A stretch of 64,000 bases of DNA from assembly GCA_004764695.1 (NCBI GenBank), contig SMSO01000007.1, positions 327,501 through 391,500 on the forward strand, read 5' to 3'. The position numbers were made by a program, and so were the translations under genes. This DNA is from Schizochytrium sp. TIO01. Taxonomy: Eukaryota > Sar > Bigyra > Thraustochytrida > Thraustochytriidae. Under the pieces are notes generated by a model, which worked only from the letters and a program-made list of their open reading frames with translations, had not been told where the DNA came from and searched no databases. Below, in pieces: positions 27,562 to 58,671 of the stretch. The stretch's first letter is position 1. The number at the start of each line of letters is the position of its first letter.

Positions 27562-28764
27562 ATGGCGCTGCAAACCTTCAACTCGGACACGTCGGCGTCG
27601 GCGAGTGCGAGTGCTTCAGAGCGCTGGACATCGGGAAGCGTGTGGAGCGGGTGCCGTCGGCTTGGGTTCGTTGCGTGTGGCGCCGAAGTCGCTCTCGGAA
27701 GCCCCGAGGAGTTGACCGAGCTCAAGGTCAAGGCGACAAGTACGGGCGAAAAGGCCTTTGGAGGCGAAAGGTTCAAGCGCTTCCTGTACGACAGCGTCGA
27801 ATATCCCCAAGAAAACAAAATGTCTTCCGACGATGCTGATCAAATTCGCAATGACGCCCTGCGCTCGCATCATGCTGGAAATGTGATGCTCCTCGCGGTC
27901 GTCTTCGTGCTCTTTGGAGGCTTTGCTCTCGCTGAGATCTTTGCTGCCATTGCCAGTTCCAGTCTATCCCTTCTCGGTGATGCTGCCAGCATGGTCGTAG
28001 ATGCCAGCACCTATGGCCTCAACATGATCGCAGAACGCCGCAAGGGCCTCGGAATTTCTGAGATGACTCGCGTCAAGCTCGAGCTCTTCATCCCTCTCGC
28101 CAGTATGTTGGCGCTCTTTGCTACTAGCGTCTACGTCATGAACGAGGCTATGGACACTATCCGTAACCCTCCTGAACACGGCGAGACCGGCGACACTATT
28201 ATGCTCATCTTTGCCAGTGTTAACCTTGCCATTGACGTGGTCTCCGTCTTCTGCTTCGCTCGCGTGAACCGTCTCCTTGGCTACGCTGTTAAGGATGCTG
28301 TCGAAGGCATCACCGAGGATGAGTATGACGCGGAGTTTGGCCATGGCAACCAGAATTCTGCTCGTGTTGGTCATGGTGACGTTGACGACGGTGATGCTGG
28401 CCTTATCACCAATGGCGTTCCCGCTTCGGAGACGACCGCGACGCAAACCAACACCTTTGAGCAGCACTTGCTTCACACCCGGGACATTGAGGCTGATCTC
28501 CACAGCAAGTCCAACACGAACATGTGCAGTGCTTACACTCATGTCATTGCAGATACGCTCCGAAGCATTGCTGTCATGGCCGCAGCTATTCTCTCTCTTG
28601 CTGACGATGACGTGAACTCGAACATTGCTGATGCATGGGCTGCGATTGCTGTTTCAGTTATTATCTTTGGATCGCTTTACCCGCTCAGTAAGGGTTTGAT
28701 GCAGAAGTACCGCCAGCTTAGGTACCTCAGGCAGAAGCAGCAGATAGAGCAACAGCAACAGTAA
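27562..28764 (+). CDS. CDF-like six-span cation transporter, paralogue 1 (400 aa)
   Basis: A single-exon gene for a membrane protein with six hydrophobic spans arranged as in cation diffusion facilitators, which export Zn, Mn or other divalent metals from the cytosol in exchange for protons. TM2 has G-D140-A-A-S143-M-V-V-D147 and TM5 has N-M-C-S-A-Y-T-H327-V-I-A-D331, followed by A-D-A-W-A-A-I in TM6. In typical CDFs the TM2 position S143 is His or Asp. The protein ends about 20 residues after TM6, so the cytoplasmic C-terminal domain is missing. This copy alone has a 70-residue acidic TM4-TM5 loop with some His. The start is uncertain: ATG 27562 gives an 86-residue Ser-rich N-terminal extension, while ATG 27820 (M-S-S-D-D-A-D) gives 314 aa. 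It lacks the N-terminal peptide shared by the other three copies. Confidence 0.82.
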   Translation: MALQTFNSDTSASASASASERWTSGSVWSGCRRLGFVACGAEVALGSPEELTELKVKATSTGEKAFGGERFKRFLYDSVEYPQENKMSSDDADQIRNDALRSHHAGNVMLLAVVFVLFGGFALAEIFAAIASSSLSLLGDAASMVVDASTYGLNMIAERRKGLGISEMTRVKLELFIPLASMLALFATSVYVMNEAMDTIRNPPEHGETGDTIMLIFASVNLAIDVVSVFCFARVNRLLGYAVKDAVEGITEDEYDAEFGHGNQNSARVGHGDVDDGDAGLITNGVPASETTATQTNTFEQHLLHTRDIEADLHSKSNTNMCSAYTHVIADTLRSIAVMAAAILSLADDDVNSNIADAWAAIAVSVIIFGSLYPLSKGLMQKYRQLRYLRQKQQIEQQQQ

Positions 28765-28918
28765 ATTATATCTTTTGTGAACTACGATGAAGTATTAAAA
28801 ATGGCAGCTGACGACTTTCCCGACTTCGTTTTCATCCCCCTGCTTTCAACCATTTCTTCCATACCTGCTTTCACAAAGACCATGATAGTAGAATATTATT
28901 AGTAGTGCAGTAGTACTT

Positions 28919-28981
28919 CTCTTCTTCTTCTTCTTCTTCTTCTTCTTCTTCTTCTTCTTCTTCTTCTTCTTCTTCTTCTTG
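28919..28981. repeat. (TTC)n trinucleotide array, about 20 units
   Basis: Uninterrupted CTT/TTC repeats of about 62 bases, 155 bases after the stop of CDF-like paralogue 1. Confidence 0.95.
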
Positions 28982-29507
28982 GCTAGCTAAGACTTCAGTT
29001 TATGGAAATAGATGCCAATGCGCGAAGGTTGAGGCCTCTGATAAAATCATAGTTTTTCTAAAAATGAAGTATCATGAACACTTTAAAGCATCTGAACCTT
29101 GGTCGAAAGCAAGAACTGTTATTGTACATTAGAGGTGGACTTGCTTGAACGGGAGTAAACGAAGCGGTCGGAATTATTACTGTTTAATACTCATTTTTCT
29201 CCCGAGTGCTTTAAAAGAAACCTCGCATGGCAAAAATTAGGGGTAAAACCAGGTTTCATATTGAAATTGAGGAAGGGGGCATCTCTGAGATCATATCTGT
29301 ACTTGGCAGGTCCCTATAAAACGATACCTTAGCCTGTAGGTAGCCTAACAGAATAATATTAGTCTTTTTTAAAAACACTGCACAAGGTGGCAGAAAATAA
29401 TTTTACAGGTCATGAGTTGAGCGCCATCCTTATAAAGCTATTTTCGTTCACAATTAATTAGTAAGTGTTCTCCATGCTACAAGTTGGACCAGGCAGTGTT
29501 GTTATTC

Positions 29508-29535
29508 AGGAGTAGGTAGGTACCTACCTACTCCT
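29508..29535. repeat. Perfect 28-bp palindrome
   Basis: The half-site AGGAGTAGGTAGGT is followed immediately by its exact reverse complement, with no spacer. Confidence 0.93.
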
Positions 29536-29988
29536 CAGGAGACATGAAGTCACAGTTCTCCAAATTCTTGCAATTCAGTCCAACAAGGCAGACCTAAACA
29601 GAACAGAACATGCTACCCTCATGTACCTAGGTAGCACCAAGATAGGTAGGTAGCATTGGTAGTATACTTTCTTCCTGAGACGATGATGCAGGGTATAAAT
29701 GATTCTTCTGACCCGAGGTATTACCCGAGCCGAACGATTGGCAATCGCGGTCTGCGAGTCTGACTCCTGAGAGTGGCGGTGATGCTTCACGAGACACGAA
29801 ATCGTCAGTAGGTACCACCTTGGTAGCTACATCAACTCATCAACATCTCACCCCAGATGGCCAAGGTAACGCTATCGAGTAACCTACCAGCTCGAACTCA
29901 CTTTCCTAGGCGAGCGATCATTGCTCTGAAGTCCGTTTATATCGCAAGCTCTACTGCAACTGGCCAGAGCCACCAATTCTGCGGCTGG

Positions 29989-30033
29989 CTGGCTGGCTGG
30001 CTGGCTAGCTCGCTGGCTGGCTGGCTGGCTGCT
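29989..30033. repeat. (GGCT)n tetranucleotide array
   Basis: About 10 units of CTGG/GGCT with one TAGCTC interruption. Confidence 0.93.
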
Positions 30034-32239
30034 GGTGGTTTTCACAGCATCATACACGCTCAGGCCGTCATCCTCAGCGCGCGACAACCCGATTTCGTAA
30101 GCTATTGGTTGTGCAAGTTGCCCAAGTTCCTCAATCTTGAGCTCAAGCATAACCCTTGGTGAGCCCGAACATCTGCACTGCAACCTGCACAACTCCAAGG
30201 GGCGGAAGACGGCGACGCCCTGGTGGGTTCTGTTACTTATGCGTCCTCATCATCGCCGCTGCAATTGTCCTTCTCCGCGTCGATGCTGAGCTTGACGCGG
30301 GTTTCCCTCGTTCACCAGCTTAAGGTATAGAAAAAATCAACCTCTGTGGAAAACGCCAATGTCCTCGCGGCCTGAAAACCAGGAGTCTGAGGCTACCCGA
30401 AGACAAGTTTGTTGCGCTGATCCGCACTCTTTCGTCAAAGCCCATCGTCGAGCTCAGCGCAGCCTTCGTCACCATGACGGTCCTGGTCTTCTCCACCTCA
30501 AAGCGTCGAGGCGCACGAGATTTGGTTCACGATCTGGCCTTCGTTTGTGAGCGAAGATAACTTGAAGGAGTCCACAACCGCAGTTGATCATAATCTAGTT
30601 GGCAAGCAGGCACGTGCCGAACATTTCTGCACGTGTCCATCATGATGGTCTCTGCCTTCGACTTCTTCGAGCTCCTGTGGAATCGCATCGCATAAATCTC
30701 GCCCAAGATCCTCGCATGCGTGGACCACACAAGCTGGCATCTCTAGAGCCTTGAAGCCAGGGCCTCACAGAGCTGCAGCGCAATGAGCCACGCCTTTGCT
30801 TGCTTGGCGTCAACGACGTCCACGTTCTCGTCCTTGAGCTCGAGTTCCTCCAAGTTCTCAGTTCCCGGATCCTCAGAAGATCATAAGTAGATCGATAAAT
30901 AGATAGGTCCTGCGAGCAATTCTTGGAACGCCCCACTGCTACCGTTTTGTCTATTTATCCCTACATCCTGCCGCCACCCTATCTATTTTGATGTCTCAGA
31001 AGGATTCAACCTCACGCTCCCGTTCAACTTGCAGGCCCAAGACGGACCGTTGCGAGGGCGAAGTTCTCAGCGTGTTGCCGGGCCCGAGGCTGGCCAAGAC
31101 CTCTTGGTTTGCGAGCTTGTCGTCCCGTCTTCGAGGCGAGCCCATGTTTTTTTGGGCGAGTTTATGACGTCAAGATCTCGCGAAATCCATTATTTTCCTC
31201 TTTTTCTTTTCTTTTTGATTTTGTTCACAATCATGTTTGTTTATTCTCATTCTTTCTTTCTCTATTTCTTTCTTTCAGTTGTGATACAAAATTTTCTTTG
31301 GAAAAAGCATTTCGGACAGACGTGTGTAAACACACAAAGCTCTGCTCGCAAACCCAAACTGCCGAAGCCGAGTTGCTCGAGATGATACAACAGGCAGGCG
31401 TGCAGGAGGCCTCCCGGGGCGCCTCCCGAGAGCGAGCGCGATCCCCACGACGGTTTCAAGCGCAGGGGCGCATGATTGATTGATTCCTTCGATTCCAAGT
31501 CCGATCTGAGTAAGAAATGATTACTCTTTATCATTTGAGGAAATCAATCAATCAATCATTCAATCATAAGTGAGTAAGAAAGAGTAGAAATAAGATGCCT
31601 CGCTGCTCCAAGTGACTGACAGCAATGCGTGTGCTTTGTAGCAACACGTGTTTCACGAACACGCTTTTCACACAAAACGCAGAGGCTGCTCTTGGCTAGC
31701 GCAGGGGACCGATCGAGAAAGATTTGGAGAGCGATGTCGCTCGTGGGTTGTTTCTGCGTTGTCTTACATTCTGAGCCAAAAAGAAGAATTATTTCGATTT
31801 CCTAATTCTTCTTCGTTTCTTTTTATATTGATTAATTATTTAGCGGTACTTATTCCTGTTTCCTCTTCGAAGTTCCTCTCCGACGATTCAATAAACAGCT
31901 CAGCTCTCTTTTAATGACATATAGAAAAATAAAGAAAGAGGTGCCGTCCTTTCGAAGAATTTGGGCGGAATAAGATCATCCAAGAACCGTCAATGGAACT
32001 TTCTGTAAATAAAACAAAACCAACTTGAAAGAACATAATACCAAATGAATGAATGAATGAATGAAGGAATGAATAAAACTGAGGCTCCTTCCTTCTAAAT
32101 TCGTACGTTCCCTCGAATAGAAGATACCTGCACAATCATGATCAGCGTCTCAGCGATCACGATGGTCCAAGTCCAGGTTGAGCTTGGGAGCGAGTGTCAG
32201 CTTATCGATTTACATTTGGGAATAAATGTGCTGCAGTTC

Positions 32240-32293
32240 CATGCAATGCAATGCAATGCAATGCAATGCAATGCAATGCAATGCAATGCAGCG
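32240..32293. repeat. (AATGC)n pentanucleotide array
   Basis: About ten uninterrupted AATGC units on the + strand. Confidence 0.95.
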
Positions 32294-32667
32294 CAACAAT
32301 CGACGAAAGAAAGCATCAGAGGGCATAAATCTTCGAGTCCGAGTCTAAGTGTGATGCAGATCTTCATCGCAAACATGTGCGCTGAAAACCAAGGACTGCC
32401 GGCGCGCTTCGGATCGTTTGCCGTCGAAGGGGTGGCACGAGCGGGTATCTTTGTGCACGGCCGCCGTGGTCGCCCTCCAAGAAAGAAGCTTTCCGGAGAG
32501 CGCCGCGGTCTGCGTCTCTAGCGAGGAGCGAGTCCTTCCCCCCTTCGCGAGGCAGCGATTCACCCGCCGCGGACCGGAGAAGATGGATGGGAGTGCGTGC
32601 GTGCGTGCGTGCATGCTTTCCTTTGAGGCAGGCAGACGAGATTGTGGAGCTTGGCCATGCTCGCTTG

Positions 32668-32792
32668 CATTGTTGCGTTGCATTGCTTTGCATTGCGTTG
32701 CATTGCTTTGCATTGCGTTGCATTGCATTGCATTGCATTGGGTTGGGTTGGGTTCGATTGCACAGGATTGCATTGCGTTGCGTTGCATTTGA
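32668..32792. repeat. (GCATT)n / (GCGTT)n / (GGGTT)n array, inverse of the AATGC array
   Basis: Long run of TTGCA-type pentamers with variant units GCGTT, GCTTT and GGGTT. Most units are the reverse complement of the array 375 bases upstream. Confidence 0.92.
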
Positions 32793-33341
32793 TCGCACAG
32801 AGCGAGCGCAGCGATCGTGATGGAACGTTGGAACTGACGACAGAGGCAGTGGCGGCGTCGGCAGGAAGAGACTGACTGACCTGGTTCTTGAGGGCTTTGA
32901 GAGAAATTGGTAGGTACTCAGGTACCTACAAGTCTCGAGGAAGAACTCGAAAGCTACCACTTCCGTTTCCCAAGGGCTTTTACTGCCCGCTACCTTAGCC
33001 GCTACAGCGAACTGGCGCAACTCGCACGATCCTAGCTAGCCAGAGGCCGCTTATCATCCATCGATGGGGATGGTGAGGTAGGTTTGCTGTGATTGAGTTC
33101 TCGCTCGCACTAAGGGCTTGACTAGAGAGAGGCTAACGTAAACCGTAGGACCCCTGGAATCCCCGTCCGCTCTTGGTGTCACAGGGAGATTTGGCCCGCT
33201 GGCGTGCAACAAAACCCAAACAAGCTCAAGCTGAGCTCTAGGTCAAGCGAGGCGAGGGCAAGACAACTTTTGCGAGGACGTAGAGAACGCTGGCATTGTT
33301 GGGGAGAGTGAAACTCAGAGAGAAATTTTACGCTTGGCGTC

Positions 33342-34217
33342 ATGTTGAACGAAGCGCCGCATGAGACCTCCACTTTTGACCGGACGGCGCCGGTGACAGA
33401 ACCCAGCATTAAAATTGAGGAGCCCGCAAGCAAAGATTATGGGCCAGCAAATGAGGACACAGACTTGGAAATTCAACATACCTCGTCTGTGGTCGTCCCG
33501 CCACTTGACCCAGAACGCTTCAAGGCACATATGTATCTTTTGACGCTGGTATGTGCGTGGTTTGGTCTCTTTGCTATCGCAGAAATCATTGCCGCAGAGG
33601 TCAGTAACAGTCTGTCTCTGCTTGGTGATGCTGCGTGCATGCTTGTAGACTCAGGCACCTACGGCATGAACATGGTTGCTGAAGCTTGCAAGCGTAAGGG
33701 TATCTCTGAGCGTAGACGCCTGATGCTAGAGCTTTTTATTCCTTTAGTTAGTATGTGCGCATTGATTGCCACAAGTTGTTATATCCTTCACGATGCCAGT
33801 ATCACTATCAGAGAAGGTGGCACCACTGGCGATGAATCTACAAACGCGAGTATGATGCTTATTTTCAGTTGTGTTGGACTTGGCATGGATGCCATCAGTG
33901 TTTTCTCATTTACCTATGTACAAGGGTTTCTTGGCTTCGAGACTGTTGACCATCCCGAAGGACGTCACATCAAGGTTGCTAGTAACACGAACATGTGCTC
34001 GGCATATTCTCATGTCTTGGCAGACACAGGACGCAGTATTGCTGCTATCGTGGCTGCCATCGTGGCTCTGAAGGTCGCTGGGGTCAATGCTGGCCTCGCC
34101 GACGCTTGGGCAGCGGTATCTATTACGATCATTATCTTCATTACGCTTATCCCTCTTGGCCGCGGTCTGATTGCAAAAACGCAGCAGCTTCGGCATCTTG
34201 AATCTGCAGACAAGTAA
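33342..34217 (+). CDS. CDF-like six-span cation transporter, paralogue 2 (291 aa)
   Basis: Single-exon CDF-like transporter starting at ATG 33342 with M-L-N-E-A-P-H-E-T-S-T-F-D-R, a leader peptide closely matched in paralogues 3 and 4. After about 65 polar residues come six spans. TM2 is G-D96-A-A-C99-M-L-V-D103, with Cys where Zn-type CDFs have His. TM5 is N-T-N-M-C-S-A-Y-S-H224-V-L-A-D228. TM6 is A-D-A-W-A-A-V followed by a long Ile-rich stretch and P-L-G-R-G. The chain ends 18 residues after TM6 with no metal-binding cytoplasmic domain. The TM2-TM3 loop R-K-G-I-S-E-R-R-R is basic, consistent with cytosolic placement. Transport of a divalent metal is inferred from the fold and the retained half-site; the ion is unknown. 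Confidence 0.85.
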   Translation: MLNEAPHETSTFDRTAPVTEPSIKIEEPASKDYGPANEDTDLEIQHTSSVVVPPLDPERFKAHMYLLTLVCAWFGLFAIAEIIAAEVSNSLSLLGDAACMLVDSGTYGMNMVAEACKRKGISERRRLMLELFIPLVSMCALIATSCYILHDASITIREGGTTGDESTNASMMLIFSCVGLGMDAISVFSFTYVQGFLGFETVDHPEGRHIKVASNTNMCSAYSHVLADTGRSIAAIVAAIVALKVAGVNAGLADAWAAVSITIIIFITLIPLGRGLIAKTQQLRHLESADK

Positions 34218-34539
34218 GCAAGTATTGAAGCAGGCTTTCTTTACTCCTGGGAACCATTGAGTGCTTAGTCTAAATGACTCTGTCTGCCTGCATCGCAAGG
34301 TCTTTTGAAAGGCATACACGCCATTGACGATCCCTCCTTTAATGAGCACTTATTTATAATAAACTCAGCTACATACACGTGCAGGCATCTTCTGGTGCAG
34401 AACCATCAAGAGTGCACTCAATCTGCGCTTGTAAATTTCACATAGTATACTTATAGGGCATTTTTCCAAGTAGTACCAATGGTATGCAAGAATATATCAT
34501 TTAATAAAAACATCATACCCATTTGTCATCTTTCATATT
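34218..34539. other. Short AT-rich gap
   Basis: The 3' flank of CDF-like paralogue 2. No supported feature. Confidence 0.4.
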
Positions 34540-36233
34540 ATTCCGAACATGAGAGGATACAAGTTCTCTTTAAATGCACTCCAAGTGATATGGGGTACTG
34601 GTTTTCTAGTGAAGTCATCGGGCGAGCTTTAAAGAGGAGCCACCAAGGCCTAGCATATATATATACATATATTTGTAGAGCAACTAATTTAGGACTGCTC
34701 AGGATAGCAACGTCCGTGTCTCTTAAATGGTAGGGATCAAAGTTCAAGGGGGCGAGGACCTACCATCTCGAAATTATACTATCCGCAAAAATCTTTTGGC
34801 GAAATGGATTCCAACATCTGGACCACGACCTCATATCAACCAATATGAATAACTCGTCCTTAGCGACCCCTTCTGCCCATGGTACGGACTGGATAGCGTG
34901 TTTGTCTGTCTCAACAACCTCTTGTGATTTTCAATCATCACCCTTTTGTTTACGAAGGCTACATACAAGAGGAAGATGCAGACGTGCGACGAATCGTAAA
35001 ATACCGTAGAAGTAGGTAGCTTCATGGTATTTTTTCCCCCCAAGATTTCTCATAAGAGCTTCGCCCAAAACAGAGCTCCAAGTCCAGAACCCAGCAATGA
35101 CTCTTTTTGCGAAGAACTTATGCAGAGATCTTGTCGAACATGCGCATACGATAGCGTTCAGCAAACATGGTCTTATATTGACCGAGCCAGTACATTAGAT
35201 ATGAATACATTTCGTGGCTGTTGTAATCAAATCATCAACAGAATGATCTGAAAGAGGTTTTTGTAGTCGTGCGTTTCCAGGAGGCCGCTTTACAAAGTCA
35301 TGTTGCGGATTTCGAACCACACAGCGTTTCACTTATCTAGTGTCCATATGTTGGTCTTGCTCTCTACCACGAAAGTCCCTCATTGATTATGCGTTTTAGC
35401 GCTGCTCACTGTTATTACGTCAATCTCCAGTTCTAGAACTCTGACTATACTCATGTGTTATAAGAAAATGAAGCCTCCGCCATAGATGTAAACGGTGATA
35501 TTATCTCTGCGAAACACATAAGATTTACCCAGCCTTTCGATAAGTTCTACTGAGCCTAACGATGCATACCTTTGGCTGGCACAAGAGAGATAATGTTGGA
35601 AAAGGTAGATGACACTTTCATAGCAAATTTAATTAAAATCGTTACACGTGCTTTAGTCTGTGGGATAGAATTTTATTAGTGAATCTCGTACACTATATGG
35701 TTTCGTTAGAATGAGTCCAAAGGACATATCGAAAGAAGGGATCCCAAGTAATAACAAAATGCTAGTCCACTGCAAAATTCTTAAGATAAACATAGAAAGT
35801 GAGACGACCATACCTTCCTCGAACATCTTATCTCTGTCCCGGAGATGTGCAGTGAATGTGAAAAATGAAACTCTAATGCCGACAAAACTTCCAAGCAATC
35901 TAAACAAGTCCCTTCGATTATACAAATACTAGCTTTGCTATTTGGGTTGGCAAGGCAAATATTTTCATATGCCGTTACAAGGTTTGTGTTTTGTCGCAGC
36001 CTAACAAAGTAACGAAGCACATTGTTTGCCTCCAAAAAGTGTACAAATGTGGTATGCCCTTCTGAGGATGGGGAACTTTGCTAGATCTGCTCTGCTGATG
36101 ATTATACCAGAACTAGTGAAAATTCGGTTCCTAGAGACTGTACAACGATATACTTCTGTTCTACAGTGCTCCCGATGCTGGGATCACTAATCGCAAAATA
36201 TTCTTGACTAGACATTGCTAGAGTTCTGGGCAT
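34540..36233 (-). pseudogene. Intron-rich or decayed gene of unknown family
   Basis: A chain of minus-strand coding-like stretches in differing frames. Exon 36108-36233 starts with ATG and reads E-Y-F-A-I-S-D-P-S-I-G-S-T-V-E-Q, ending at a GTATAA donor in phase 0. Next is a region open in two frames (H-F-L-E-A-N-N-V-L-R-Y-F or G-I-P-H-L-Y-T-F-W). An intron GTATGG..TTTTGCAG near 35770-35820 keeps one frame open into W-T-S-I-L-L-L-L-G-I-P-S-F and a stop near 35674. Further stretches lie at about 35450-35550 (V-E-L-I-E-R-L-G-K-S-Y-V-F-R-R), 35230-35360, 34790-34920 (D-E-L-F-I-L-V-D-M-R-S-W) and 34540-34745. I cannot connect them into one frame, so several lesions or many small introns are implied. 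They may be one gene or two. The G-I-P-H fragment faintly recalls casein-kinase-1 proteins, but this is not claimed. Confidence 0.35.
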
Positions 36234-39138: not shown

Positions 39139-40005
39139 ATGATGCTGGACGAGGCTCCCCAAGAAGCAACAACCTTTGACCGAGCGGGGTCGTCAGGTTG
39201 CAAAGGCGAATCACCCCCCTGCGAGACTAACGATGTTGAGCAGGGTGGTCAAGATGTGAAAGATGGTCAAGAGGCTGAGATGATAGACGTGAAGGTGTAC
39301 AAGAACCACATGTATCTGCTGATTCTGGTCTTCATTTGGTTTGGCTTGTTTGCCATTGCAGAGATTGTGGCTTCATCGATTGCCAACAGTCTTTCTCTGA
39401 TGGGTGACGCAGCATGTATGATTGTCGATTCTGCAACCTATGGCATGAACATGGGTGCAGAAACTTGCAAGCGCAAGGGCGTATCCGAGAAGCGCCGTCT
39501 CAAGCTTGAGCTCTTTATTCCTCTGGTGAGTATGCTTGCGCTCATGGGTACGAGCTGCTATGTCCTGGATGATGCAACTCAAACGATCAGAGCCGGTGGA
39601 ACCTTTGGTACAAGCTCTACCAACGCTAACATCATGCTGATCTTTAGCTGTGTAGGTCTTGCGATGGACTTCATCAGTGTCTTCTCCTTCACATTTATAC
39701 AGGGGTTTATGGGCTTTGAACTGAAGGACAAACACGGGGATAACCAAGGAATTGAAGTTGCGAGCAACACTAACATGTGCTCCGCTTACTCACACGTTCT
39801 GGCGGATACAGGTCGCAGCATTGCAGCGATTGTCGCAGCAGTAGTTGCAATGACATGTCCTAACGTTAATGCAGGACTTTCAGATGCCTGGGGCTCTGTG
39901 GTTATCACCATCATCATCTTCTTATCTCTCATTCCGCTTGCTGTCGGACTTGTCCAAAAGGTGCAACAGCTTCATGCCCTCAACCAACGCGCGGACAACC
40001 GGTAA
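39139..40005 (+). CDS. CDF-like six-span cation transporter, paralogue 3 (288 aa)
   Basis: Single exon from ATG 39139 (M-M-L-D-E-A-P-Q-E-A-T-T-F-D-R; the second Met may be used). Six spans with TM2 G-D90-A-A-C93-M-I-V-D97 and TM5 S-N-T-N-M-C-S-A-Y-S-H219-V-L-A-D223. The TM2 Cys is shared with paralogue 2, to which it is closest: both have G-M-N-M, C-K-R-K-G and F-S-F-T-(Y/F) in TM4. In TM6 the usual A-W-A-A is A-W-G-S. It ends 20 residues after TM6. The N-terminal tail is acidic and Gly/Gln-rich. As with its relatives the transported ion is unknown, and the short TM4-TM5 loop (about 20 residues, K-D-K-H-G-D) has no His-rich segment. Confidence 0.85.
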   Translation: MMLDEAPQEATTFDRAGSSGCKGESPPCETNDVEQGGQDVKDGQEAEMIDVKVYKNHMYLLILVFIWFGLFAIAEIVASSIANSLSLMGDAACMIVDSATYGMNMGAETCKRKGVSEKRRLKLELFIPLVSMLALMGTSCYVLDDATQTIRAGGTFGTSSTNANIMLIFSCVGLAMDFISVFSFTFIQGFMGFELKDKHGDNQGIEVASNTNMCSAYSHVLADTGRSIAAIVAAVVAMTCPNVNAGLSDAWGSVVITIIIFLSLIPLAVGLVQKVQQLHALNQRADNR

Positions 40006-47588: not shown

Positions 47589-47619
<31 letters not shown>

Positions 47620-48412: not shown

Positions 48413-51400
48413 GGAAAACGCAAATTTTAGTCAGTCAATCATCCAAAAGGATACTAGTCTGCTGTATGTCTCACTTCTTTTTTTATTTTTGTTTTATAGG
48501 GTGTCTTGAAAGAAGTGCAAAGGGAATGTAATTGCTATACGGACAAATTGGCATAGCCGCTGCTATCGACTTAGTTGTCATGGGAATTACTGCTGTCCTC
48601 TTATCTAGCTAATTAAATTCACGGACTCAATTAACACTTTTTTTTTTTCTAATTTCTCTAATTCCGAAAAAGTTGTAGGACTTGAAGGGCCGTCATTCGA
48701 CATTTTTTCTCGTCAATCGGCCTCAAGGGGTCTTATTATAAAAATTCAAAAGCTCAGCTATCCATCATTTAAAAATTCTAAACAATTCTGATCATAGCCT
48801 CTCCGCGATTCTTGAAACTATATTGATCAAAGGCATACCTCGCAAACAATTTCACATTTAGAATCAGCGTCTCGGCGAGATCTAATTCCTGCTATATTTC
48901 AATATTCACGCAAATTCATTTTTTGCCACCAGGCTGTGAGGGTGATATGAATGTCACTCATTTTCAGTTTTTCATATCAAATACCACATAACAGCATAAT
49001 TGGCGCTGCAAATTTTAAGTTCCCTAAAATGTCTCGTACGCATATACATCAGAACCCCCTGCAATTTTCTTCAAAATTCTCAAACCCAGCCTTGCCATTC
49101 GAGGACCTCACGTCAAAGGAAACTAATTCTATACAGCTAGCTAACTGATAGCTCGCCCATAGAGGCGGGCTCCTGTGGTGCTTACTAACTAACTAACTAG
49201 CTCGCTACCAACTCAAAGTTCAATACACAAGACCATAAAAGAACATGATAAAAAATTGAAAAGAAAAGAAAAAAACATTGAAACGAGGGGTTCTACAATG
49301 AAATCAAATCAATCGAACAAAAACCGTCGCCAAGTCTTCAGAATTTGTTGGGCTTCCTTCCTCCTTGCTCTTGCCAGGCCCGTAGGAGATTCCACTGTGT
49401 GCCTGCTAACGCCAAGTTCACGAGTCGCTTGACGATTTGATATTATTCCCCATCGTGCGAGAAAACAGAAGGAAACCAAGGGTCCCTGCTGCGGGCAAAA
49501 GAGTACAACAAATAAACAAATCAATAAACTAATAAATCAATAAACTAATAAATAAACTAATTAATAAACAAATCAATAGGCGGTCGTCTCGTGTCTTGTT
49601 CTGTCGCATTGCTTTCTTCGCCAGGCCGCGCGGACAGTCTTTCGTTCGTTCCCTGTTCTGTGACACCTCGCTGTCGTCAAGGTCATCGTAAAACTGGCGC
49701 CGACTAGCGGCTGCAGCCGCCGAATGCGTGCATGCGTGCCTCGGTGACAAGCCTTCTGTCTGTACTTGATGCCTTCAGATGCATGCAATCAATGCTGTTG
49801 CATATTGCGGCGCTTTGGGACGTCGATGAGGGAAAGAGCATTGCTTCGCGCTTGCTAAGACGAGAATTGGAAACTCCTTCCACGAACTAAGGACTCGAAT
49901 TACATTACACGCAGCGCAGAGAATTGATTGAATTACACTTAGATTGTGCAGAATCAGCTCTTGCTCCATTCTCGCCCAATCTGAGCCGCTCTGCTTTGCA
50001 CGGAGTGGATTTGCGTTTGGCCTGGCGTGACCTCGCTTGAGCTTTGCGTGTTCACGAAATCGACCAGAAAGTCCATCCGCAATTCATGGCCATCACAGCG
50101 CGGACGCGGGCGAGGAAGGCCAGGGAGATCCCCAAAGAAGCGGAACAGCCAGCTCAACTCAACTCCGCTCAACTAAACTCAACTCAACTCAGCACGTGCT
50201 CCGTTGTGCTGGTCTGCCTCTGTCAGTGCTTGTTCTCATTGCCGTCGTTGTCGTTGCTGTCATTGCTGTTATTGTTGTTGGTTCACAGGTGTGCCGCTGT
50301 CGAGGATGCTGGCGAAGACCACGATGAACAAAGCATCCCGTTTGGCGATGGTTGTTGCGGAGGAAGTCGCTCAGGTCGGCTCGTTTCAGCTAGCGGCACA
50401 GTGCGCTCTTTGTGCTTTGGGCGATCTCGGTGGCGTGTCCTGAGCGCTTCTTCGATGGCCTCTTCGCGAGAGAACTTCACCAAGACTTCCTTCGTCTTTG
50501 CAGTCCTCGTTTCGTCACCAGTATGGACCGTAACGAACGAACGAGCGAGTCAGCTCCTTCCTGGGACGCCACGCAAGCACGACGCCGGGGTCGGTCTCGA
50601 GGAGGCGCCGACCAGCCCCTTTTCGAGATCGTGTCGGGCAAGCTCTGGGACGCCGGTCTTCTGCTGGGGCTTAGAGAGGAGCACGGCATTCATCTCCAAA
50701 AGCTTTTGTTTTGCCACTCTATGCAAATGCAATGCAATGCAATGGCCTCAGGGGACCCGCACCGCGGCAGGATCCCCAAAGGTTCCGCGCGGGTTCCGCA
50801 GTTTACAGCAGCGGCATTGCATTGCTTTGCTTTCCTTTACTTTGCTTTGCTTTTTAGGTTTCTGAAAGAGATAGATATCAGGGCCTTGAGGATTGGTTGT
50901 TGGGTGCATAGGATGGTTGGGTCTCAGGAGCACGTGGCGATGACTGCCTCTCTCTGGGCTGTTGGAGCCCCTTCGCCGCTGCCAGCGAGTGCGTCCGCGG
51001 AGCGATCGATCGTTGAAGTGGTCTGTTTATGTATGTATGTATGTATCTATCTATCTATATATTTGTTCAACCTATCTGTGCGAGATTTTGTAGGAATGGA
51101 AGGCGTTTGCAAAAATTGAAGAAGTTGAGTGCGCAAACCTAAACAAGAATAAGAGAACGGCTGGAGAAGCTGAGCGGCTGTGAGCTGTCTTGTGCAGCGG
51201 CGTCTACGAAGCGGTTCTTCCACGGCTTCTGTGCAATGTCAACGTCTTCTGGCGTCCATTTTATCTGAGATAGATGAAGAAACCACATTTACATTCTTAA
51301 TCCTCCAAAAGAAGAAGAAAAGGAAGATTTTATATATATATTTTTAAATAAAAAAATTAAAGTTAACTTTGTAACTCATTCTCAAAGTAAGTAACTGAGT

Positions 51401-51896
51401 AAGTAAGTAGCAATAATCATTTTACATAAAACAAACAGAAAACTTGCAAGTAAAGAAAAGAGAAAGAAAAGGTTTTTTGAGGGCAAAGTGAGATAATAAA
51501 GCAAACTATAGAATATTTAGTCGCTCGTTGATTGATTGTTTGATTGTTTCTTTTTGTTTCTTTTTTGTCCAAAAGAAGAAGAAGAAGAAGTGTCGCCAAT
51601 TTCTCATGGCCGGGGGCCGCGGCTTGAGCAAAACGAAGGCAGAGATGGACAAATGGCCTTTCGACGCCCTCCAAGATAGGCCCAGACACGTCTTTCTGCT
51701 GAGGCGGCGGCTTATTTGGCGGACCTCAGCTGGCTCCCGCAACGGCGATTACGTTGTTGTCGTTAATTTGAAAGAAATCAGCCCAAAGGCTGCTTCTGCG
51801 AAGGCGAGAGCTGAATTCGTGTTGAAACTTTATGTATGAGGACTATCATTTTCTGTCGCATTATTGTTAGGAACCTATCGCAATTGCTTAGTGAGT
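48413..51896. other. Intergenic, AT-rich then GC-rich
   Basis: No supported gene. At 49390-49450 (minus) a short open stretch encodes a helix-turn-helix-like peptide (see findings). From 49570 to 51000 the DNA is GC-rich with several overlapping open frames but no domain. (AACTC)n at about 50155-50190, AATGC and GCATT/GCTTT arrays at about 50722-50745 and 50813-50853, and (ATGT)n/(ATCT)n at 51030-51060. Confidence 0.4.
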
Positions 51897-52052
51897 GTGT
51901 TGTTTGTTTGTTTGTTTGTTTGTTTGTTTGTTTGTTTGTTTGTTTGTTTGTTTGTTTGTTTGTTTGTTTATTTGTTTGTTTGTTTGTTTGTTTGTTTGTT
52001 TGTTTGTTTGTTTGTTTGTTTGTTTGTTTGTTTGTTTGTTTGTTTGTTTGTT
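51897..52052. repeat. (TTTG)39 tetranucleotide array
   Basis: About 156 bases of GTTT repeats with one G-to-A interruption at 51970. Longest pure microsatellite of the window. Confidence 0.97.
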
Positions 52053-55000
52053 CGAGGTAGTCATGCATGTCAGTTATGTGATGCCTTCATTTACGTCCCT
52101 CCTCCTTTAAATCTTTCTTTACCTCTATTCTACTTATAGTTTTTAAGGAAAGCAATTAATAAACTTATCTTATTATTATTATTTTAATTTAAAAAAAAAA
52201 AAAAAAGGCTGGGATAGAAGGGGTTGAAGAAGAGCGAATACCCATTCCACAAATCGAGCATTATGTATTTATGTACCTACGCAGGTATTTTCGCGTTGGA
52301 CTTAAACTTGGAGCCAACGCGAATGCAAGTGATCAGGTCGAGGATAGCTTGAACGTACCTGGACACTCATGACCGCAAGAGCGACCATGAGCGTGCTCAA
52401 AATAAATTCCTCGTTGTTTCAAGTCTCACTGTCTGTTGTTGTTGACAAGATGGCGCAGGTGTGCGCATGCATATATAGCATATCATATCATCATCATCAT
52501 CATCATACACACCGGTTTGCACAGCACGTTCATCGTGTTCTTCGCCAGCCATCCAGAGAAAGAACCGAGGCTTGTGCAATCTATTTCTTAGTCAATCCCA
52601 TTCGCCACTCAGCTCGGAAACACCTGCGTGCGGCTTGAGCGAGTTGGGTTTGTTCGCATGCTTGGAGATGGACCTTCTTCAAGGCTCGAGCCGTCTTTGT
52701 CGATGAATGTGCCGCAACTTCGAACTGCAATTCCTGACGAAACGACATCCATGATAGATATCCACGAACCTCGGCACGTACTCGGCCTCGAGGAAAACGG
52801 TTTGTTTGTCAAAGGCGGCCTGGGCTCGATTCGGCCTCGAAGCGATCCCAATGATCTGAATTGCGCCTCGTGGCCACGTCTTTTGCAGCGGTCCTAAACG
52901 CTTGCAAAGAAAGAAGCCAACTTCTCGTTGGGTTATCTTGGGTTCTTTAGAGAATGCTTCGAGTTTGTTTTGCAGCGAATTCATTCATTCATTCATTCAT
53001 TCATTCGCAGACAACGAACTCGGAAGAACTCGAAGATCGATGGGTTCATCGATTGATTGATTGAGCGGCAGAAGAGCATCATCTTCTTCGCAGAGAGAAA
53101 CTCGAGCTCTTTAAAGGATTTCTGGGCAGAGTTGCCGATTGCGAAGAAAGACAACAGAGTGCATACGGGTCAGCTCAATGTCGCTCTCAATGCTTTTGAT
53201 GTTGATTCTTCTTTGTAAACAGATTGAGAGCCTTTGCTCATCGAGGATGTCGGTTGAGAATAGACGCTTATTTTCAAGGTTTAGATCTTCTTCATTCGAT
53301 GCTCTAAGGACCTCATGGTAGTAAAGTGTTCGAAATACCCTTTTACAAATACTTTAATTAAAAAAATAAAAAAATAAAAAGATTGAAAAAACTCTGGTCT
53401 TGACCAATTGGGAAAAAGGTTCTTTAGAGCATTTTTCAGGCTGAAGAACCTTTTTCTGGTGGACCAATCTTTGGCGGTAGGCAGCGATCGATCTGCATTG
53501 AATGAATCGAGGCTACACGTAGCAGAAGCAGCAACGATCGCCACGCAGGTTGGTTATCCTTCCAAAACCTTTCTTTCTTGCTTGCTTGCTTGCTTTTCTT
53601 CTCGTTGTCCATTCACGGGGGATGAGTGGTGCGGTACAGCACTAAAACAATGAAGCAATAAAAAAAGAAAGTAATTGAAATGAAAGTATAATTCCTATGA
53701 TGTCCAAAAACAATTGTTTATCTGCCTATTGATTTTTATAAATTTGACATGATGAGTGGGAGTTGTTACTTTCGTAGGGGTTCAGCGGGAGTGAAAGGGC
53801 GATTCAGCTGTGACCAGAAATCAGTTGGATCTCTGTAAAAGGTGGCCAGGAAAATGCCTATGGTGCGAGGATTGGTAGCAAAAAGCGGAATCGCATGGGG
53901 AGTGGAAACGGAGAAGAGAACCGTCATCTGTCGTAGACAGACCAACTTAATTAAGTTCAAGGCCATCTCCGTCCAGAAGCGTACTTATGCCAGAGACAAC
54001 TTGCTTGCTTGCTTGTCTGCTTCTTAGTATCGCCATCGCAATCATTATAGTGATCATTGCCATGGTATCTCCATCATGATCGAGACTATCGCTGGTATTG
54101 ATTGATATCGTCGCCGTGGTCGTCTTTATGGTGGTTTACGATAGTCACAATTCCTGCGCCACTCAGTCAGTCGCATACATATATTATATATACTTATCTA
54201 CATACTAGCTCGCTCGAGGTGACTGTGTATGATTTGCTCCACCTTTCGTTTGCTTTTGGTTGGTTTGCGTTTAAGGAAATGGGTGCAAACCTATCTACGC
54301 AGCGGTAGATAGATAGATACCTTTAGATTGTCAAGTTTGGTTTGGTTTTGGTGCTCTTGATCTCGTGTCTGCTTGTTTGTTGAGCGAGGGTTTCGAGGCT
54401 TCCCAGGCTGATCTTGGAACGCCTCTGAGCGAGCACGATGGGTGCTGCAGCACAGCCGGTTTCTTCAGGCGTTGATTATTTGTCGGTGCGTAGCTTCGAG
54501 CCTGCAATGCATCGATCGACTACGTTCAAGGTGCACAATTTCTACGCCGCGGTCGTGTTCATGCATAAGATCGGCAAAAGGTGAAGGCACCTTCATATTC
54601 GTACTCGAGGAGTAGAAAGAAGAAAACCAAGAAAGTCTCATGGCATGGCCACCCTACTAGCTAGAACTGCGCTATAATGTGTTATTGCTGTTGCGTTCAA
54701 GATCACTGAAGAGGCCACTAAATGCCTACGTGCTACCTACTCGAAACCAAGAAGCAAAAGGCAGAGTTTTCCAGCTCCAGGGAAGAATCGTTTCACGATT
54801 GAAGGATCAACGTGTTTTTTAAAAAGCGGATTATGGCTTGAGCAGGCAAAACGGCGCCCGTTCTCTTGCTTTCGCTAACGCTACGCTCAAAATCATCGAC
54901 CTGGATTTTCTACCAACTCACAAGCGAGTTTAGAAACTGAGATGATGGAATGGTAAGAGGGAGTTTTTACTCAAAAGGCGGCCTAGAAAACAAACTATGA

Positions 55001-55214
55001 GACACACCTGCACACACTCACGTTCTTGAAGGCAGCTGTAGATATCAAGCTAAACCGACAATAGGAGACGTTGGCCCTGAGCTAGCTGATTACGGAAGTC
55101 CAATTGGCGGTCCAGAGATATCTGCTTCTCTGATTTACAGGTTATCAGGCTAAGTCGAAGCCATAAGAAGAGGGCGATCGATCACTTGTCGTCCGCAAGC
55201 CAAAAAAGCTTATT
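52053..55214. other. Intergenic with scattered microsatellites
   Basis: No supported gene. (ATC)n near 52485-52506, (ATTC)n at 52979-53007, (CTTG)n near 53576-53594, and (TAGA)n near 54305-54320. Overlapping open frames on both strands at 52.6-53.0 kb show no domain. Confidence 0.4.
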
Positions 55215-55448
55215 ATGGTGGCAGGTTTCAAAAGCTTTAATCCCCGTTTTCAGCAAAAGTTCAAGTCCGCCCTGTCATATCTGGTTGGTGCTGTAGACAA
55301 TAATGATCAGAATAATCATATAAGTATTCTTCGAGGCGCAAACAACGTGGACTGGCAGGGCGAGCGTATAGCCAACTTTCCTGTAAAGACTGCATATCTA
55401 CGTGCGTCCAAGCTCGAAGAAATCGTGGCTTTCGAAAGCCGTCGAAAA
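55215..55448 (+). CDS. Possible first exon of a spliced gene
   Basis: ATG 55215 opens a coding-like frame of 78 codons (M-V-A-G-F-K-S-F-N-P-R-F-Q-Q, later N-V-D-W-Q-G-E-R-I-A-N-F) up to a consensus GTATGT donor at 55449 in phase 0. The frame stays open a further 25 codons to a TGA at 55524 if not spliced. No downstream exon could be identified with confidence, and the protein is not recognised. Confidence 0.3.
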
Positions 55449-57765
55449 GTATGTACTGCTATTAGTACCGAGGTACTTTTTTCACCTTCCCTTTTCTCTG
55501 AGTGCACATTCTCGTTACTGGTTTGATTGATAGTTTTATTTTTTTATTTATTTTTAAGTTTTTTCGAATTAGAAAAAATAAAAAATAAAAATGTAAATGT
55601 TAGAAAAGAAAGAGAAAGAGAGAAAGAGGACGCTTCGAAAATAAATGCACGCTATTCTTTCTTCTAGTAGGAAAGCGAATTCTGAAGTTGGTACTACTAC
55701 CACTTTGTGTAAGGGTTCATTACGGTAAGGTTGCGCCAAGCCCAAACTGCCATTTAAAGTGGCACGGACTAATGAATCAGCGCTTGGTTGAGATGAATTA
55801 AGTTCTTGAAAACCAAAAAAATGCTTGAACTATGCTTAAGAACGAGCACGATAGCGTCTTCAGCTTCATTTAATCAGAATTCACCTCAGGGCGTGCTGCC
55901 AAATCCAAAGTTTTAAGTCGAAACTTGCAAAACGATTGAATGAATCAGCAATATTAAAAAACAATCTCATTGTACAGTGATTGATTGCAATACATCCATC
56001 GAACTGTTAACTGCATAGGGGCTTTTATATCATGGTGTAAGATTCGTTTCGAAATGAAAACAGGAAATCATTATGCTGATCTCGGATTTTACGAGCTAGA
56101 TAGATTTTATAAATGACAGACGTATATTGCGTGAACTTCTTTCCATCCTACAGTCATTCATTCATTTGTTTGGTTTTCCATTTCGCTGAAAAAATAAATT
56201 AGATTCTTAACTTGAGGTAGCTGGCTTCCTCAAATTCATTCCACGACGCCCAAAGAAAAAACTTTCTTGATTGAAGCTATAGGTGGGGGTGTACCTACTT
56301 GCAAGTACAGCTTGAGCTCTTTTGTCAGTGACTGAGCCAGTTTTTTTTTTTAACAAAGGACAATCAGAAAGAAGTCGAGGCGGCCAAATTTAATTTTTAA
56401 TTTAATTAAAAAAAAAGGAAAAGTTTACATTAAAAAAAAAAATTATGTTTGGCGACAGCGACAACTTCTCAATGTTTGTTTATTCATAATTCATGCGAGG
56501 CTTCGGTTCAGAGCATGGTGTTTAGTTTCTTCTCTCTAACTTTAGAATATCAAAGCAAAATTCAAGCTAAAGTAAACAAAATCAACCTATAGACTTCGCC
56601 TTGAAGTTGGAAAGAAAGACTTGCCAACCTTTAGAGTTTTGTAGGTCGTCATGGAGATTAAAAAGTAAATATGGAAAAATTAATCAACTATAAAGCATGT
56701 TTTAACTAAGCTTGGCTCCGGGAAGCAAAATCTATGCGCTGACCTGACCAGGTCTGACGGGGCCGAAGCCAATCCTACTCGAGACTCATAATTTTAAAAG
56801 TCAGAAGCAGCTCGAGCGCACGCCACTCAATATTCCAGAGTACGTTTTATTCTCTTGAACCTCATGAAAAAAACAACCGATTCTTCCTCTTGTGCGTGCG
56901 GCCTTTCCCATCGCTGATCTATCTGTCCACTTGAGCACAGTAGGTAGTAGTACAAAATACAAGTGTCAATCGTTGAAGTAATTTTTATTTAAAGTGAAAA
57001 AATTGGATATATATATAATATGAATAGATAAAGAAAAACTTTTTTGTTGAAGGGTTGAAGTTCTACTACATATAAGTAAAGAGTGGCTTTTAAAAAAGGA
57101 AAAAAATAAGGATTCATCTCGGAATGAAAGGAGCGCGTCTGGGACTGTTGTGATGGTTCTGATGACGATTGAAGCAGACCAGAGTTGGCTGGAAATTCCA
57201 ACATTTCGCCAAAGGACTTTATGATTAAGTTTGAATTAGACTTTTCCACGAATCTCAAAGAAGTGCTACTACAGGCAATTGGCTAGGAAGGAAGGAAAGT
57301 ATTGCTTTTAAAGATTTAAATTTTAATAGAGAAAGAAAGAGAAATGAATCACCTGATATAATGAATAAAAAAAGGAGAAAGAGAGAAATTCTAACTAATT
57401 TGAAAGAATAATTGTAAGTAGACCAGGACGCCTCAGCTGCGAATTATAGTACAGATCACTGGGAGATCCTACTGGCCACTAGAAGTGACTCGGAGCAGGC
57501 CGCAGCGCAGGCATTGCAAGCTCAGCAAATCCAAAACGTGGATCACAGAAAAAAACAAAACCAACAACACGACCACCAAGACAAGGCAAGCATCTATTGC
57601 TTAGATACTTGCTGCTTTGGAAATAGTCTGTGGACAGTATATCGATCGATATTATCTGGCTGCTGCGTTGAGCCGTGGAGACCTGAAAGCAAAACCATAA
57701 ATCCCCGCAACCTGTAGACAGACATCAAAGTCACCTTTGAAGTTTTGAGAAACTAATTTAGCAAA
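55449..57765. other. AT-rich intergenic
   Basis: 2.3 kb, AT-rich, with A- and T-homopolymers near 55540-55600 and 56340-56445. No supported frame. The last 350 bases are less AT-rich and probably include the promoter of CDF-like paralogue 4. Confidence 0.45.
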
Positions 57766-58671
57766 ATGCTTCAACAACAGCCCGAAGCACCGCAGGAAAG
57801 CACGACCTTCGACCGCTCGGAGACACCGACCACTTTCCCGGACTACAAGAATGCCGACGTAGAGGACCCTGTTGACAACAAGGTTACAGATGATCAAATT
57901 AGTCGTACTGACAGTGCTAGGGAGCACCGCCAGAACATGTTCCTTCTCGCAATGGTCTGCATTCTTTTTGGACTCTTTGCCATTGCTCAGATTATTGCTG
58001 CTGTCATCGGTAACAGTCTCTCGCTTCTCGGTGACTCCTCCAGTATGATTATCGATGCCGCTACCTACGGTCTTAACATGGTTGCTGAAGTGTGCAAACG
58101 GCGTGGTATCACCAAATCTACTCGCGTGAAGCTCGAGCTGTTTATTCCCCTCTTCAGTATGGTTGCATTGATTGCCACCAGTATTTACATTATTGAGGAT
58201 GCCGCCGTCACCGTGGCCTCAATCGAAGAAATCAGTGCCGACGAGCAGAACGTAACCAACGATAAGCTTATGCTTATCTTTAGCTGCATCAACCTTGGTA
58301 TTGATGTCTTCAGCGTCTTCTTCTTTGCTCGCGCCAAGGCGTGCTTCGGCTTCAACACTGTGGACATTCTCCTTGACCCCAACAACCTTGATTCTGGAGT
58401 GAAGAAGGAGGGTAACACTAACATGTGCTCTGCATACACGCATGTTATGGCTGATACCATGCGCAGTTCTGCTGTCGTCATTGCAGCTATTGTTTCCATC
58501 AAGGGCAAGGGCGTGAACCCCAACCTTGCGGATGCTTGGGCTGCTATTGCTGTGTCTATTATTATCTTCATTTCAATGATTCCGCTCGGCCGTGGCCTCG
58601 TGCGTAAGTGCTTTGAGCTCCACAAGATCAACGAAGAGAAGAAGGCTGCCGAGGCGATGGACCGTGCCTAA
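57766..58671 (+). CDS. CDF-like six-span cation transporter, paralogue 4 (301 aa)
   Basis: Single exon from ATG 57766 with M-L-Q-Q-Q-P-E-A-P-Q-E-S-T-T-F-D-R, again the shared leader peptide. TM2 is G-D90-S-S-S93-M-I-I-D97 (Ser at the variable metal position, as in paralogue 1) and TM5 is G-N-T-N-M-C-S-A-Y-T-H226-V-M-A-D230. TM6 is A-D-A-W-A-A-I-A-V-S-I-I-I-F and P-L-G-R-G. The lumenal TM3-TM4 loop is longer and more acidic than in paralogues 2 and 3 (E-E-I-S-A-D-E-Q-N). The C-terminal tail is about 25 residues, Glu/Lys-rich, helical, with no folded domain. Coding sequence is C/T-rich at third positions, unlike the AT-rich flanks. Confidence 0.85.
   Translation: MLQQQPEAPQESTTFDRSETPTTFPDYKNADVEDPVDNKVTDDQISRTDSAREHRQNMFLLAMVCILFGLFAIAQIIAAVIGNSLSLLGDSSSMIIDAATYGLNMVAEVCKRRGITKSTRVKLELFIPLFSMVALIATSIYIIEDAAVTVASIEEISADEQNVTNDKLMLIFSCINLGIDVFSVFFFARAKACFGFNTVDILLDPNNLDSGVKKEGNTNMCSAYTHVMADTMRSSAVVIAAIVSIKGKGVNPNLADAWAAIAVSIIIFISMIPLGRGLVRKCFELHKINEEKKAAEAMDRA

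What the first reader, a model, noticed from the sequence alone, without database searches (positions are those of the whole stretch)
27562..58671. Four dispersed CDF-like transporters with an altered metal site and no C-terminal domain
All four keep TM5 N-M-C-S-A-Y-(S/T)-H-x3-D and the TM2 D-x2-(S/C)-x3-D, but the TM2 residue that is His or Asp in known Zn/Mn CDFs is Ser (copies 1 and 4) or Cys (copies 2 and 3). None has the cytoplasmic C-terminal domain. All are intronless and on the + strand, spread over 31 kb with unrelated spacers. An undescribed CDF subfamily, possibly thiol-coordinating in copies 2 and 3, is the best reading.
Basis: partly seen in the sequence, partly recalled or inferred. 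Interest (0 to 1): 0.7.

Follow-up and report, generated by a model that had tools for sequence, protein, structure and literature searches.

The report
Metal pumps with a rearranged site
A marine-protist-like genome carries a cluster of shortened metal-export proteins whose metal-gripping residues differ from those of known relatives, which suggests, but does not show, that they move a different metal.

Summary
The four intronless ORFs are CDF (cation efflux) proteins: PF01545 E 1e-19 to 6e-15, all over cut-off. An AlphaFold model of copy 4 has six helices, and the first 36 rows of the structure comparison are all CDFs. A fifth copy starts 0.8 kb beyond the window, and C35, C7 and C13 each hold one more. 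None shows the C-terminal domain; its profile hits nothing on this contig. The TM2 His/Asp is Ser in four, Cys in three and Thr in C13.

New here: the seven single-frame copies also carry Asp in TM4 where 75 of 75 canonical prokaryotic CDFs have Asn. This is Asn127 of the manganese exporter SLC30A10. Its reported inner Mn site, D40/N127/D248/S252, is D/D/D/S in 7 of 7, while a review calls its residue at the lost-His position (N43) dispensable. I read the family as CDF antiporters whose cation site has moved inward and become more acidic, so probably for hard ions such as Mn2+ or Ca2+. A thiol site is not excluded, but Ser and Cys interchange within the family. Metal choice is inferred; no transport was measured.

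The parts
27562..28764 (+). CDF copy 1 (400 aa, Ser type; long TM4-TM5 loop)
   Evidence: PF01545 E 1e-19; TIGR01297 86.4 bits, over its cut-off of 82.35
27979..28002 (+). copy 1 TM2 D140-x2-S143-x3-D147
28234..28236 (+). copy 1 TM4 Asp225 (Asn in canonical CDFs)
28540..28566 (+). copy 1 TM5 H327-x3-D331-x3-S335
33342..34217 (+). CDF copy 2 (291 aa, Cys type)
   Evidence: PF01545 E 4.3e-15; TIGR01297 64.5 bits, below cut-off
33627..33650 (+). copy 2 TM2 D96-x2-C99-x3-D103
33888..33890 (+). copy 2 TM4 Asp183
34011..34037 (+). copy 2 TM5 H224-x3-D228-x3-S232
39139..40005 (+). CDF copy 3 (288 aa, Cys type)
   Evidence: PF01545 E 6.4e-15; TIGR01297 67.1 bits, below cut-off
39406..39429 (+). copy 3 TM2 D90-x2-C93-x3-D97
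39667..39669 (+). copy 3 TM4 Asp177
39793..39819 (+). copy 3 TM5 H219-x3-D223-x3-S227
57766..58671 (+). CDF copy 4 (301 aa, Ser type; the modelled protein)
   Evidence: PF01545 E 4.8e-19; TIGR01297 77.1 bits, below cut-off; AlphaFold mean pLDDT 80.8, six helices
58033..58056 (+). copy 4 TM2 D90-x2-S93-x3-D97
58303..58305 (+). copy 4 TM4 Asp180 (aligned with SLC30A10 Asn127)
58441..58467 (+). copy 4 TM5 H226-x3-D230-x3-S234 (aligned with SLC30A10 H244, D248, S252)

Best explanation
[quoted passage not shown] The usual outer tetrahedral site has lost its first TM2 ligand (His/Asp to Ser/Cys/Thr). The remaining TM2 Asp and TM5 His-x3-Asp are kept. An inner, cytosol-facing site built from TM2 Asp90, TM4 Asp180, TM5 Asp230 and Ser234 (copy 4 numbers) has become more acidic through the TM4 Asn-to-Asp change. 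By analogy with SLC30A10, whose reported Mn site uses the four homologous positions, I think hard cations (Mn2+, possibly exchanged with Ca2+) are the likeliest cargo. Shown here: family, fold by prediction, no detectable C-terminal domain, both substitutions and their invariance. Inferred: transport, direction, metal and mechanism.
For: Family and predicted fold are CDF. The profile of 7 copies aligns SLC30A10 D40, N43, N127, H244, D248 and S252 with copy 4 positions 90, 93, 180, 226, 230 and 234 (residue numbers counted by me from the printed alignment). D90, D97, D180, H226, D230, S234 and D256 are invariant in 7 of 7, while residue 93 varies. At the TM4 position 75 of 75 usable prokaryotic canonical CDFs (of 80 fetched) have Asn and the 7 copies have Asp; at TM2 it is His 75 of 75 against S/C 7 of 7. 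A review (passages, PMC13272668) reports the SLC30A10 Mn site as D40/N127/D248/S252 and says that N43 has no significant effect on Mn transport. The homologous ZitB residues D50, N135 and S167 are listed as having no function when changed to Ala (PMC1868760 table). In the structural comparison the Mn-bound SLC30A10 chains align at rmsd 2.3-2.5 over 178-179 residues with 26% identity, the highest identity among the 36 CDF rows.
Against: By sequence profile ZnT8, a Zn transporter, scores higher than SLC30A10 (49.9 against 42.0 bits), and by Z ZnT3, ZnT7 and one YiiP chain rank above it. The inner-site residues are also needed in the Zn exporter ZitB, so they do not mark Mn by themselves. One bacterial CDF (L154, of 47 loci) has TM4 Asp together with an ordinary HD-HD site, so TM4 Asp does not by itself mark a new metal. 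The Thr copy on C13 keeps TM4 Asn. Residue 25 of SLC30A10, printed as Glu in one paper and Gly in another, is reported to be needed there; the aligned TM1 Glu is Gln in three of seven copies. The genome already has a Mn-type DD-DD CDF (L021). The review also cites studies in which N43 did matter, and another paper finds only limited correlation between the site and the metal.
Confidence: 0.42

Rival explanations
1. Ordinary Zn-type CDFs with a relaxed outer site: three ligands (TM2 Asp, TM5 His and Asp) plus water or the small Ser/Cys side chain still carry Zn2+ or several metals.
For: TM2 Asp97 and TM5 H-x3-D are invariant in 7 of 7. The best profile match is ZnT8. FieF D45C is listed as wild type. 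A study of A-sites finds only limited correlation of site and metal.
Against: His-to-Ala at this position is listed as no function in RmCzcD and PtdMTP1. It does not explain the invariant TM4 Asp.
Confidence: 0.27
2. One reading: in the Cys copies (2, 3 and 5) the TM2 Cys ligates a soft metal (Zn, Cd, Cu) and the Ser copies differ in cargo.
For: Cys sits at the ligand position and an engineered Cys there works in FieF. Copies 2 and 3 pair at 100/99.
Against: Ser and Cys alternate in one clade and the split needs two changes on the best tree; 21% of 200 bootstrap trees need only one. The Thr copy shows a third residue. All seven share the acidic inner site.
Confidence: 0.13
3. Non-transporting or regulatory partners that act as heteromer subunits of the canonical CDFs, like yeast Zrg17 or ZnT6 (their partner role is recalled).
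For: The A-site is incomplete; Zrg17-like proteins also depart from the motif (PMC1868760 passages).
Against: TM5 H-x3-D, TM2 Asp, TM6 Asp and the inner-site residues are invariant in 7 of 7, unlike Zrg17-like proteins, where TM5 is T-x3-S/T. Per site, replacement change is less than silent change in all 21 pairs.
Confidence: 0.12

Closest known systems
SLC30A10 (ZnT10), Ca/Mn antiporter of the CDF family
   Same: Same fold (rmsd 2.3-2.5, 26% identity); non-His residue at the first TM2 ligand; D40, D248 and S252 conserved.
   Different: N43 is S/C here; N127 is Asp here; the TM1 Glu is Gln in 3 of 7; no C-terminal domain detected here; whole-profile score is below that of ZnT8.
ZnT8/ZnT2-like and ZitB/CzcD-like Zn-CDFs (HD-HD site)
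   Same: Best profile match (ZnT8, 2e-12); TM2 Asp, TM5 H-x3-D, TM6 Asp.
   Different: TM2 His lost, TM4 Asn to Asp, no ZT_dimer domain, no His-rich TM4-TM5 loop.
CTD-lacking CDFs of bacteria (review passage, PMC6465983; MmCDF3 is named in PMC4995437, its lack of the domain being recalled)
   Same: No cytoplasmic C-terminal domain.
   Different: I had no sequence of MmCDF3 to compare. No bacterial relative with Ser/Cys was seen in the scans made or among the 47 loci looked at.
L013, another CDF of the same genome (C13:2441519)
   Same: Places as sister of the 7 copies (99/97) and has only 44 residues after the TM6 reference column.
   Different: Keeps His-x3-Asp in TM2, has Ser at the aligned TM4 position and a long His-rich loop. 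Long branches make the sister placement unsure.
TMEM163 (proposed ZnT11)
   Same: An atypical CDF-like zinc transporter (PMC7926707 passages).
   Different: TM2 is D-x3-D there; L011 and L012 in this genome look closer to it by recalled resemblance only.

Membership tests
CDF superfamily | Cation_efflux profile PF01545 over its cut-off | tested here: met
   4 of 4 window copies, plus copy 5, C35 and C7; both C13 pieces also pass
CDF superfamily | NCBIfam TIGR01297 over its cut-off of 82.35 bits | tested here: inconclusive
   Copy 1 passes (86.4); copies 2-4 are below (64.5, 67.1, 77.1) with E 9e-18 to 1e-21
CDF superfamily | Six-helix CDF fold | tested here: met
CDF superfamily | Published TM2 signature (Montanini 2007, with [HDNEL] at position 10) | tested here: not met
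   0 of 7 copies match; position 10 is S or C. The test is not diagnostic: of 9 other own-genome CDF frames only L017, L020 and L021 match; ZitB and FieF match
CDF superfamily | Cytoplasmic C-terminal dimerisation domain (usual, not universal) | tested here: not met
   No ZT_dimer hit in 7 of 7 and 9-71 residues after the TM6 reference column; the profile also misses 3 of 8 other CDFs
Zn-CDF with HD-HD site | His-x3-Asp in TM2 | tested here: not met
   S in 4, C in 3 of 7
Zn-CDF with HD-HD site | His-x3-Asp in TM5 | tested here: met
   7 of 7
SLC30A10-type Mn exporter | Inner site D40/N127/D248/S252 | tested here: inconclusive
   D, D and S conserved in 7 of 7; N127 is Asp in 7 of 7
SLC30A10-type Mn exporter | Mn2+ transport | not testable with these tools
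   needs an assay
Mn-CDF (DD-DD, MTP8-11 type) | Asp-x3-Asp in TM2 and TM5 | tested here: not met
   TM5 is His-x3-Asp in 7 of 7, TM2 S/C-x3-Asp

The most novel reading that the evidence does not exclude
A CDF class in which the selective site has moved from the TM2/TM5 tetrahedral A-site to an acidic TM2-TM4-TM5 site facing the cytosol, set for a hard divalent ion (Mn2+ or Ca2+), which works without any C-terminal sensor domain and has been kept in at least seven old, diverged copies in one protist.
Probability: 0.3. Interest if true: 0.6.

Novelty: new variant of a known kind. Interest (0 to 1): 0.4.

Why it matters
How CDF transporters choose their metal is unsettled: the passages read here disagree on whether the first TM2 residue matters. 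This family is a natural experiment that removes that residue and changes the TM4 residue instead, in a protein without a detectable C-terminal domain. A few yeast tests could say whether the inner TM2-TM4-TM5 site sets metal choice.

Tried and rejected
Non-CDF six-span family: rejected; for the four copies no other Pfam family reached its cut-off, and the first 36 structure rows are CDFs.

Pseudogenes: rejected for the seven copies (open frames; codon usage like genes for the five on C6; per-site silent change above replacement change in 21 of 21 pairs). dS is saturated in most pairs, so no dN/dS value is claimed. The C13 locus is split over two overlapping frames (L014:1759-2268 and 2175-2879); whether that is an intron, an error or a broken gene I cannot tell.

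Hidden C-terminal domain in another exon: no ZT_dimer match on C6, with the caveat that the profile also misses three own-genome CDFs that have long tails.

Relatives elsewhere: the 7-copy alignment gave no confirmed relative in genome contigs (155 stretches matched, none confirmed) or viral contigs (68 matched, none confirmed); a mixed alignment gave none in viral contigs; copy 4 gave none in plasmids at 1e-3. A canonical alignment found one viral contig with a CDF, L104. With the 7-copy profile, 154 of 398 genomes of the phylum of L094 (a Halomonas record) and 68 of 392 of the phylum of L024 (a planctomycete record) had matches at E<=0.001. Only the loci handed out were looked at: 47 (one of them, L107, in a virus record). 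At the TM2 position 46 have His and 1 Asp; none has Ser/Cys. The other matches were not read. Eukaryote genomes could not be searched, so how widely the family occurs is unknown.

Metal from tree placement: not resolved; long branches. Ser/Cys ancestry: not resolved.

Literature: no paper held both 'cation diffusion facilitator' and 'thraustochytrid', and none held two of the six terms (the family name and five motif spellings); searches listed nothing on such a subfamily in the rows shown (20 of 33, 15 of 1,934 and 20 of 905). PMC4965547 (SLC30A10 mutants) is not held; the primary cryo-EM paper was not in the rows, so its site is taken from a review.
Full report
OBSERVATION. The four ORFs exist as described, on the + strand and without introns: 27562-28764, 33342-34217, 39139-40005 and 57766-58671. 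All four hit PF01545 over its cut-off, E 1e-19, 4.3e-15, 6.4e-15 and 4.8e-19, and TIGR01297, where only copy 1 passes the curated cut-off.

EXTENT. The window is C6:327501-391500 of a 64.06 Mb, 37-contig eukaryote genome. PF01545 gives 18 matches there, two of them pieces of the C13 locus. Copy 4 used as a query finds eleven places: the four window copies (copy 1 in two pieces), a fifth at C6:392638-393333 (its open frame starts at C6:392296, about 0.8 kb past the window), one on C35 (71% identical), one on C7, a two-piece one on C13, and one canonical CDF on C31. So there are five copies in about 38 kb and eight loci in all. The first-ligand residue is Ser (copies 1, 4, C35, C7), Cys (copies 2, 3, 5) or Thr (C13). 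The genome also carries a PfaA-type PUFA-synthase gene over that family's cut-off, which with genome size and the intronless genes suggests a thraustochytrid. That is an inference that leans on recalled knowledge; I did not identify the species.

SURROUNDINGS. From 24 to 71 kb (window plus 7 kb beyond) the only strong coding signals are the five CDFs. They score 40.1-73.7; the best other stretch that does not overlap them scores 19.4. The spacers share matches of at most 32 nt. ORFs of 250 aa or more cover 12% of 24-64 kb against 38% of the first 24 kb; the 10-kb stretches before the window and after L009 have 21% and 18%, so low density is not confined to the cluster. No tRNA and no Rfam family at gathering threshold is in the window. 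Genes with introns in the spacers are not excluded.

NO C-TERMINAL DOMAIN. ZT_dimer is not reported for any of the seven copies. They have 20, 14, 16, 22, 9, 23 and 71 residues after the TM6 reference column, against 85-309 in L017, L020, L016 and ZitB. The control is imperfect: ZT_dimer was found in L017, L018, L021, ZitB and FieF but not in L016, L019 or L020. Genome-wide it has three places, none on C6. The model of copy 4 ends in one long helix, residues 252-300.

THE SITE. I aligned the seven copies with own-genome CDFs, E. coli ZitB and FieF, and with 75 of the 80 prokaryotic loci (five dropped by length). In the 75, TM2 is His 75 and TM4 is Asn 75; TM5 is His 55 and Glu 20. In the seven copies TM2 is S/C and TM4 is Asp in 7 of 7. 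The 75 came from a canonical query, and one of its two patterns includes the TM2 His, so the His count is biased; the TM4 count is not selected by pattern, but it is limited to that class. The 47 loci handed out by searches with the seven-copy profile are 46 His and 1 Asp at TM2, and 46 Asn and 1 Asp at TM4. The one TM4 Asp (L154) has an ordinary HD-HD site. So TM4 Asp exists elsewhere, but I saw both changes together only in this family. The C13 copy has Thr in TM2 and Asn in TM4. In total 22 polar or charged positions are invariant in the seven copies, among them D90, D97, E124, D180, H226, D230, R233, S234 and D256.

LINK TO SLC30A10. In the profile alignment with SLC30A10 (9kvx) the residues D40, N43, N127, H244, D248 and S252 face copy-4 positions 90, 93, 180, 226, 230 and 234 (residue numbers counted by me from the printed alignment). 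A 2026 review (passages only, PMC13272668) says the cryo-EM structure shows a Mn-specific site of D40, N127, D248 and S252, that D40 is critical, and that N43 has no significant effect; it also cites studies that found N43 important. The older CDF mutant table (PMC1868760, passage) lists ZitB D50A, N135A and S167A as no function. So the inner-site residues are needed in a Zn transporter too and do not mark Mn by themselves. What is special here is an extra acid at the N127 position together with the missing His. Mn-bound SLC30A10 has the highest sequence identity (26%) among the CDF rows of the structural comparison, but ZnT3, ZnT7 and one YiiP chain have higher Z, and ZnT8 has the higher profile score. 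The Mn reading is therefore a lead, not a result.

THE THIOL IDEA. FieF D45C is listed as wild type, so Cys at this place is workable. But Ser and Cys alternate inside one clade, and the label needs two changes on the best tree, with 21% of 200 bootstrap trees needing only one. The other residues named above are shared by the Ser and Cys copies. I give it 0.13.

AGE AND CONSTRAINT. Silent sites are saturated or nearly so in all 21 pairs (pS 0.67-0.87), while replacement divergence is pN 0.23-0.54. Together with codon usage this says old, retained genes, not a recent array.

ORIGIN. On a tree of 23 rows (7 of the 80 prokaryotic loci included) the seven copies form one clade (98/96). L013, a CDF with a His-rich loop, ordinary TM2 His and a short tail, is its sister at 99/97, which would put loss of the C-terminal domain before the change of site. 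Several rows, L013 and C7 among them, have long branches, and the program warns against trusting such joins; the C13 Thr copy was left out of the tree.

LITERATURE. CTD-less CDFs are known in bacteria (review passage). First-site residues named in the passages read are H, D, N and E, and the 2007 signature also allows L. I found no description of S/C/T first-site CDFs in the rows shown by the searches made, in a library that lacks most subscription papers. Papers were seen as passages (PMC6465983, PMC4995437, PMC5703985, PMC1868760, PMC7926707, PMC13272668, PMC12221091) or as listings; none was read in full.

VERDICT. A real CDF variant: ordinary in fold and family, unusual in its site and in having no detectable C-terminal domain. 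I did not find it described. It is of moderate interest because it offers a clean test of what sets metal choice.

Noticed in passing
window 6994-8238 and 9544-10785, + strand: Two adjacent class-V aminotransferase genes (PF00266 E 4.1e-21 and 4e-24), a tandem pair.
   Followed up: no
window 24000-64000: A gene-poor stretch: ORFs of 250 aa or more cover 12% against 38% in the first 24 kb (18-21% in two further flanking stretches), and the only strong coding ORFs are the CDF copies.
   Followed up: partly
L014:1759-2879 (C13): A Thr-type relative whose CDF domain lies in two overlapping frames, with TM4 Asn; intron, error or broken gene not decided.
   Followed up: partly
L013:2358-3971 (C13:2441519): A CDF with ordinary TM2 His-x3-Asp, a long His-rich loop and a short tail after TM6; possible sister of the family.
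   Followed up: partly
L016:2588-3796 (C31:1267749): A CDF with His-x3-Asn in TM2, where the second ligand Asp is Asn.
   Followed up: no
L011 and L012 (C30, C24): Two CDF-like frames with Glu-x3-Asp in TM2 and no His-x3-Asp in TM5, also short after TM6 (L012 is just below the PF01545 cut-off); TMEM163-like by recalled resemblance.
   Followed up: no
L135, L136, L137, L139, L143 and 12 others of the 47 loci: 17 of 47 loci have His in place of the second TM2 Asp (HH-HD quartet).
   Followed up: no
L154: A bacterial HD-HD CDF with Asp at the TM4 Asn position.
   Followed up: partly
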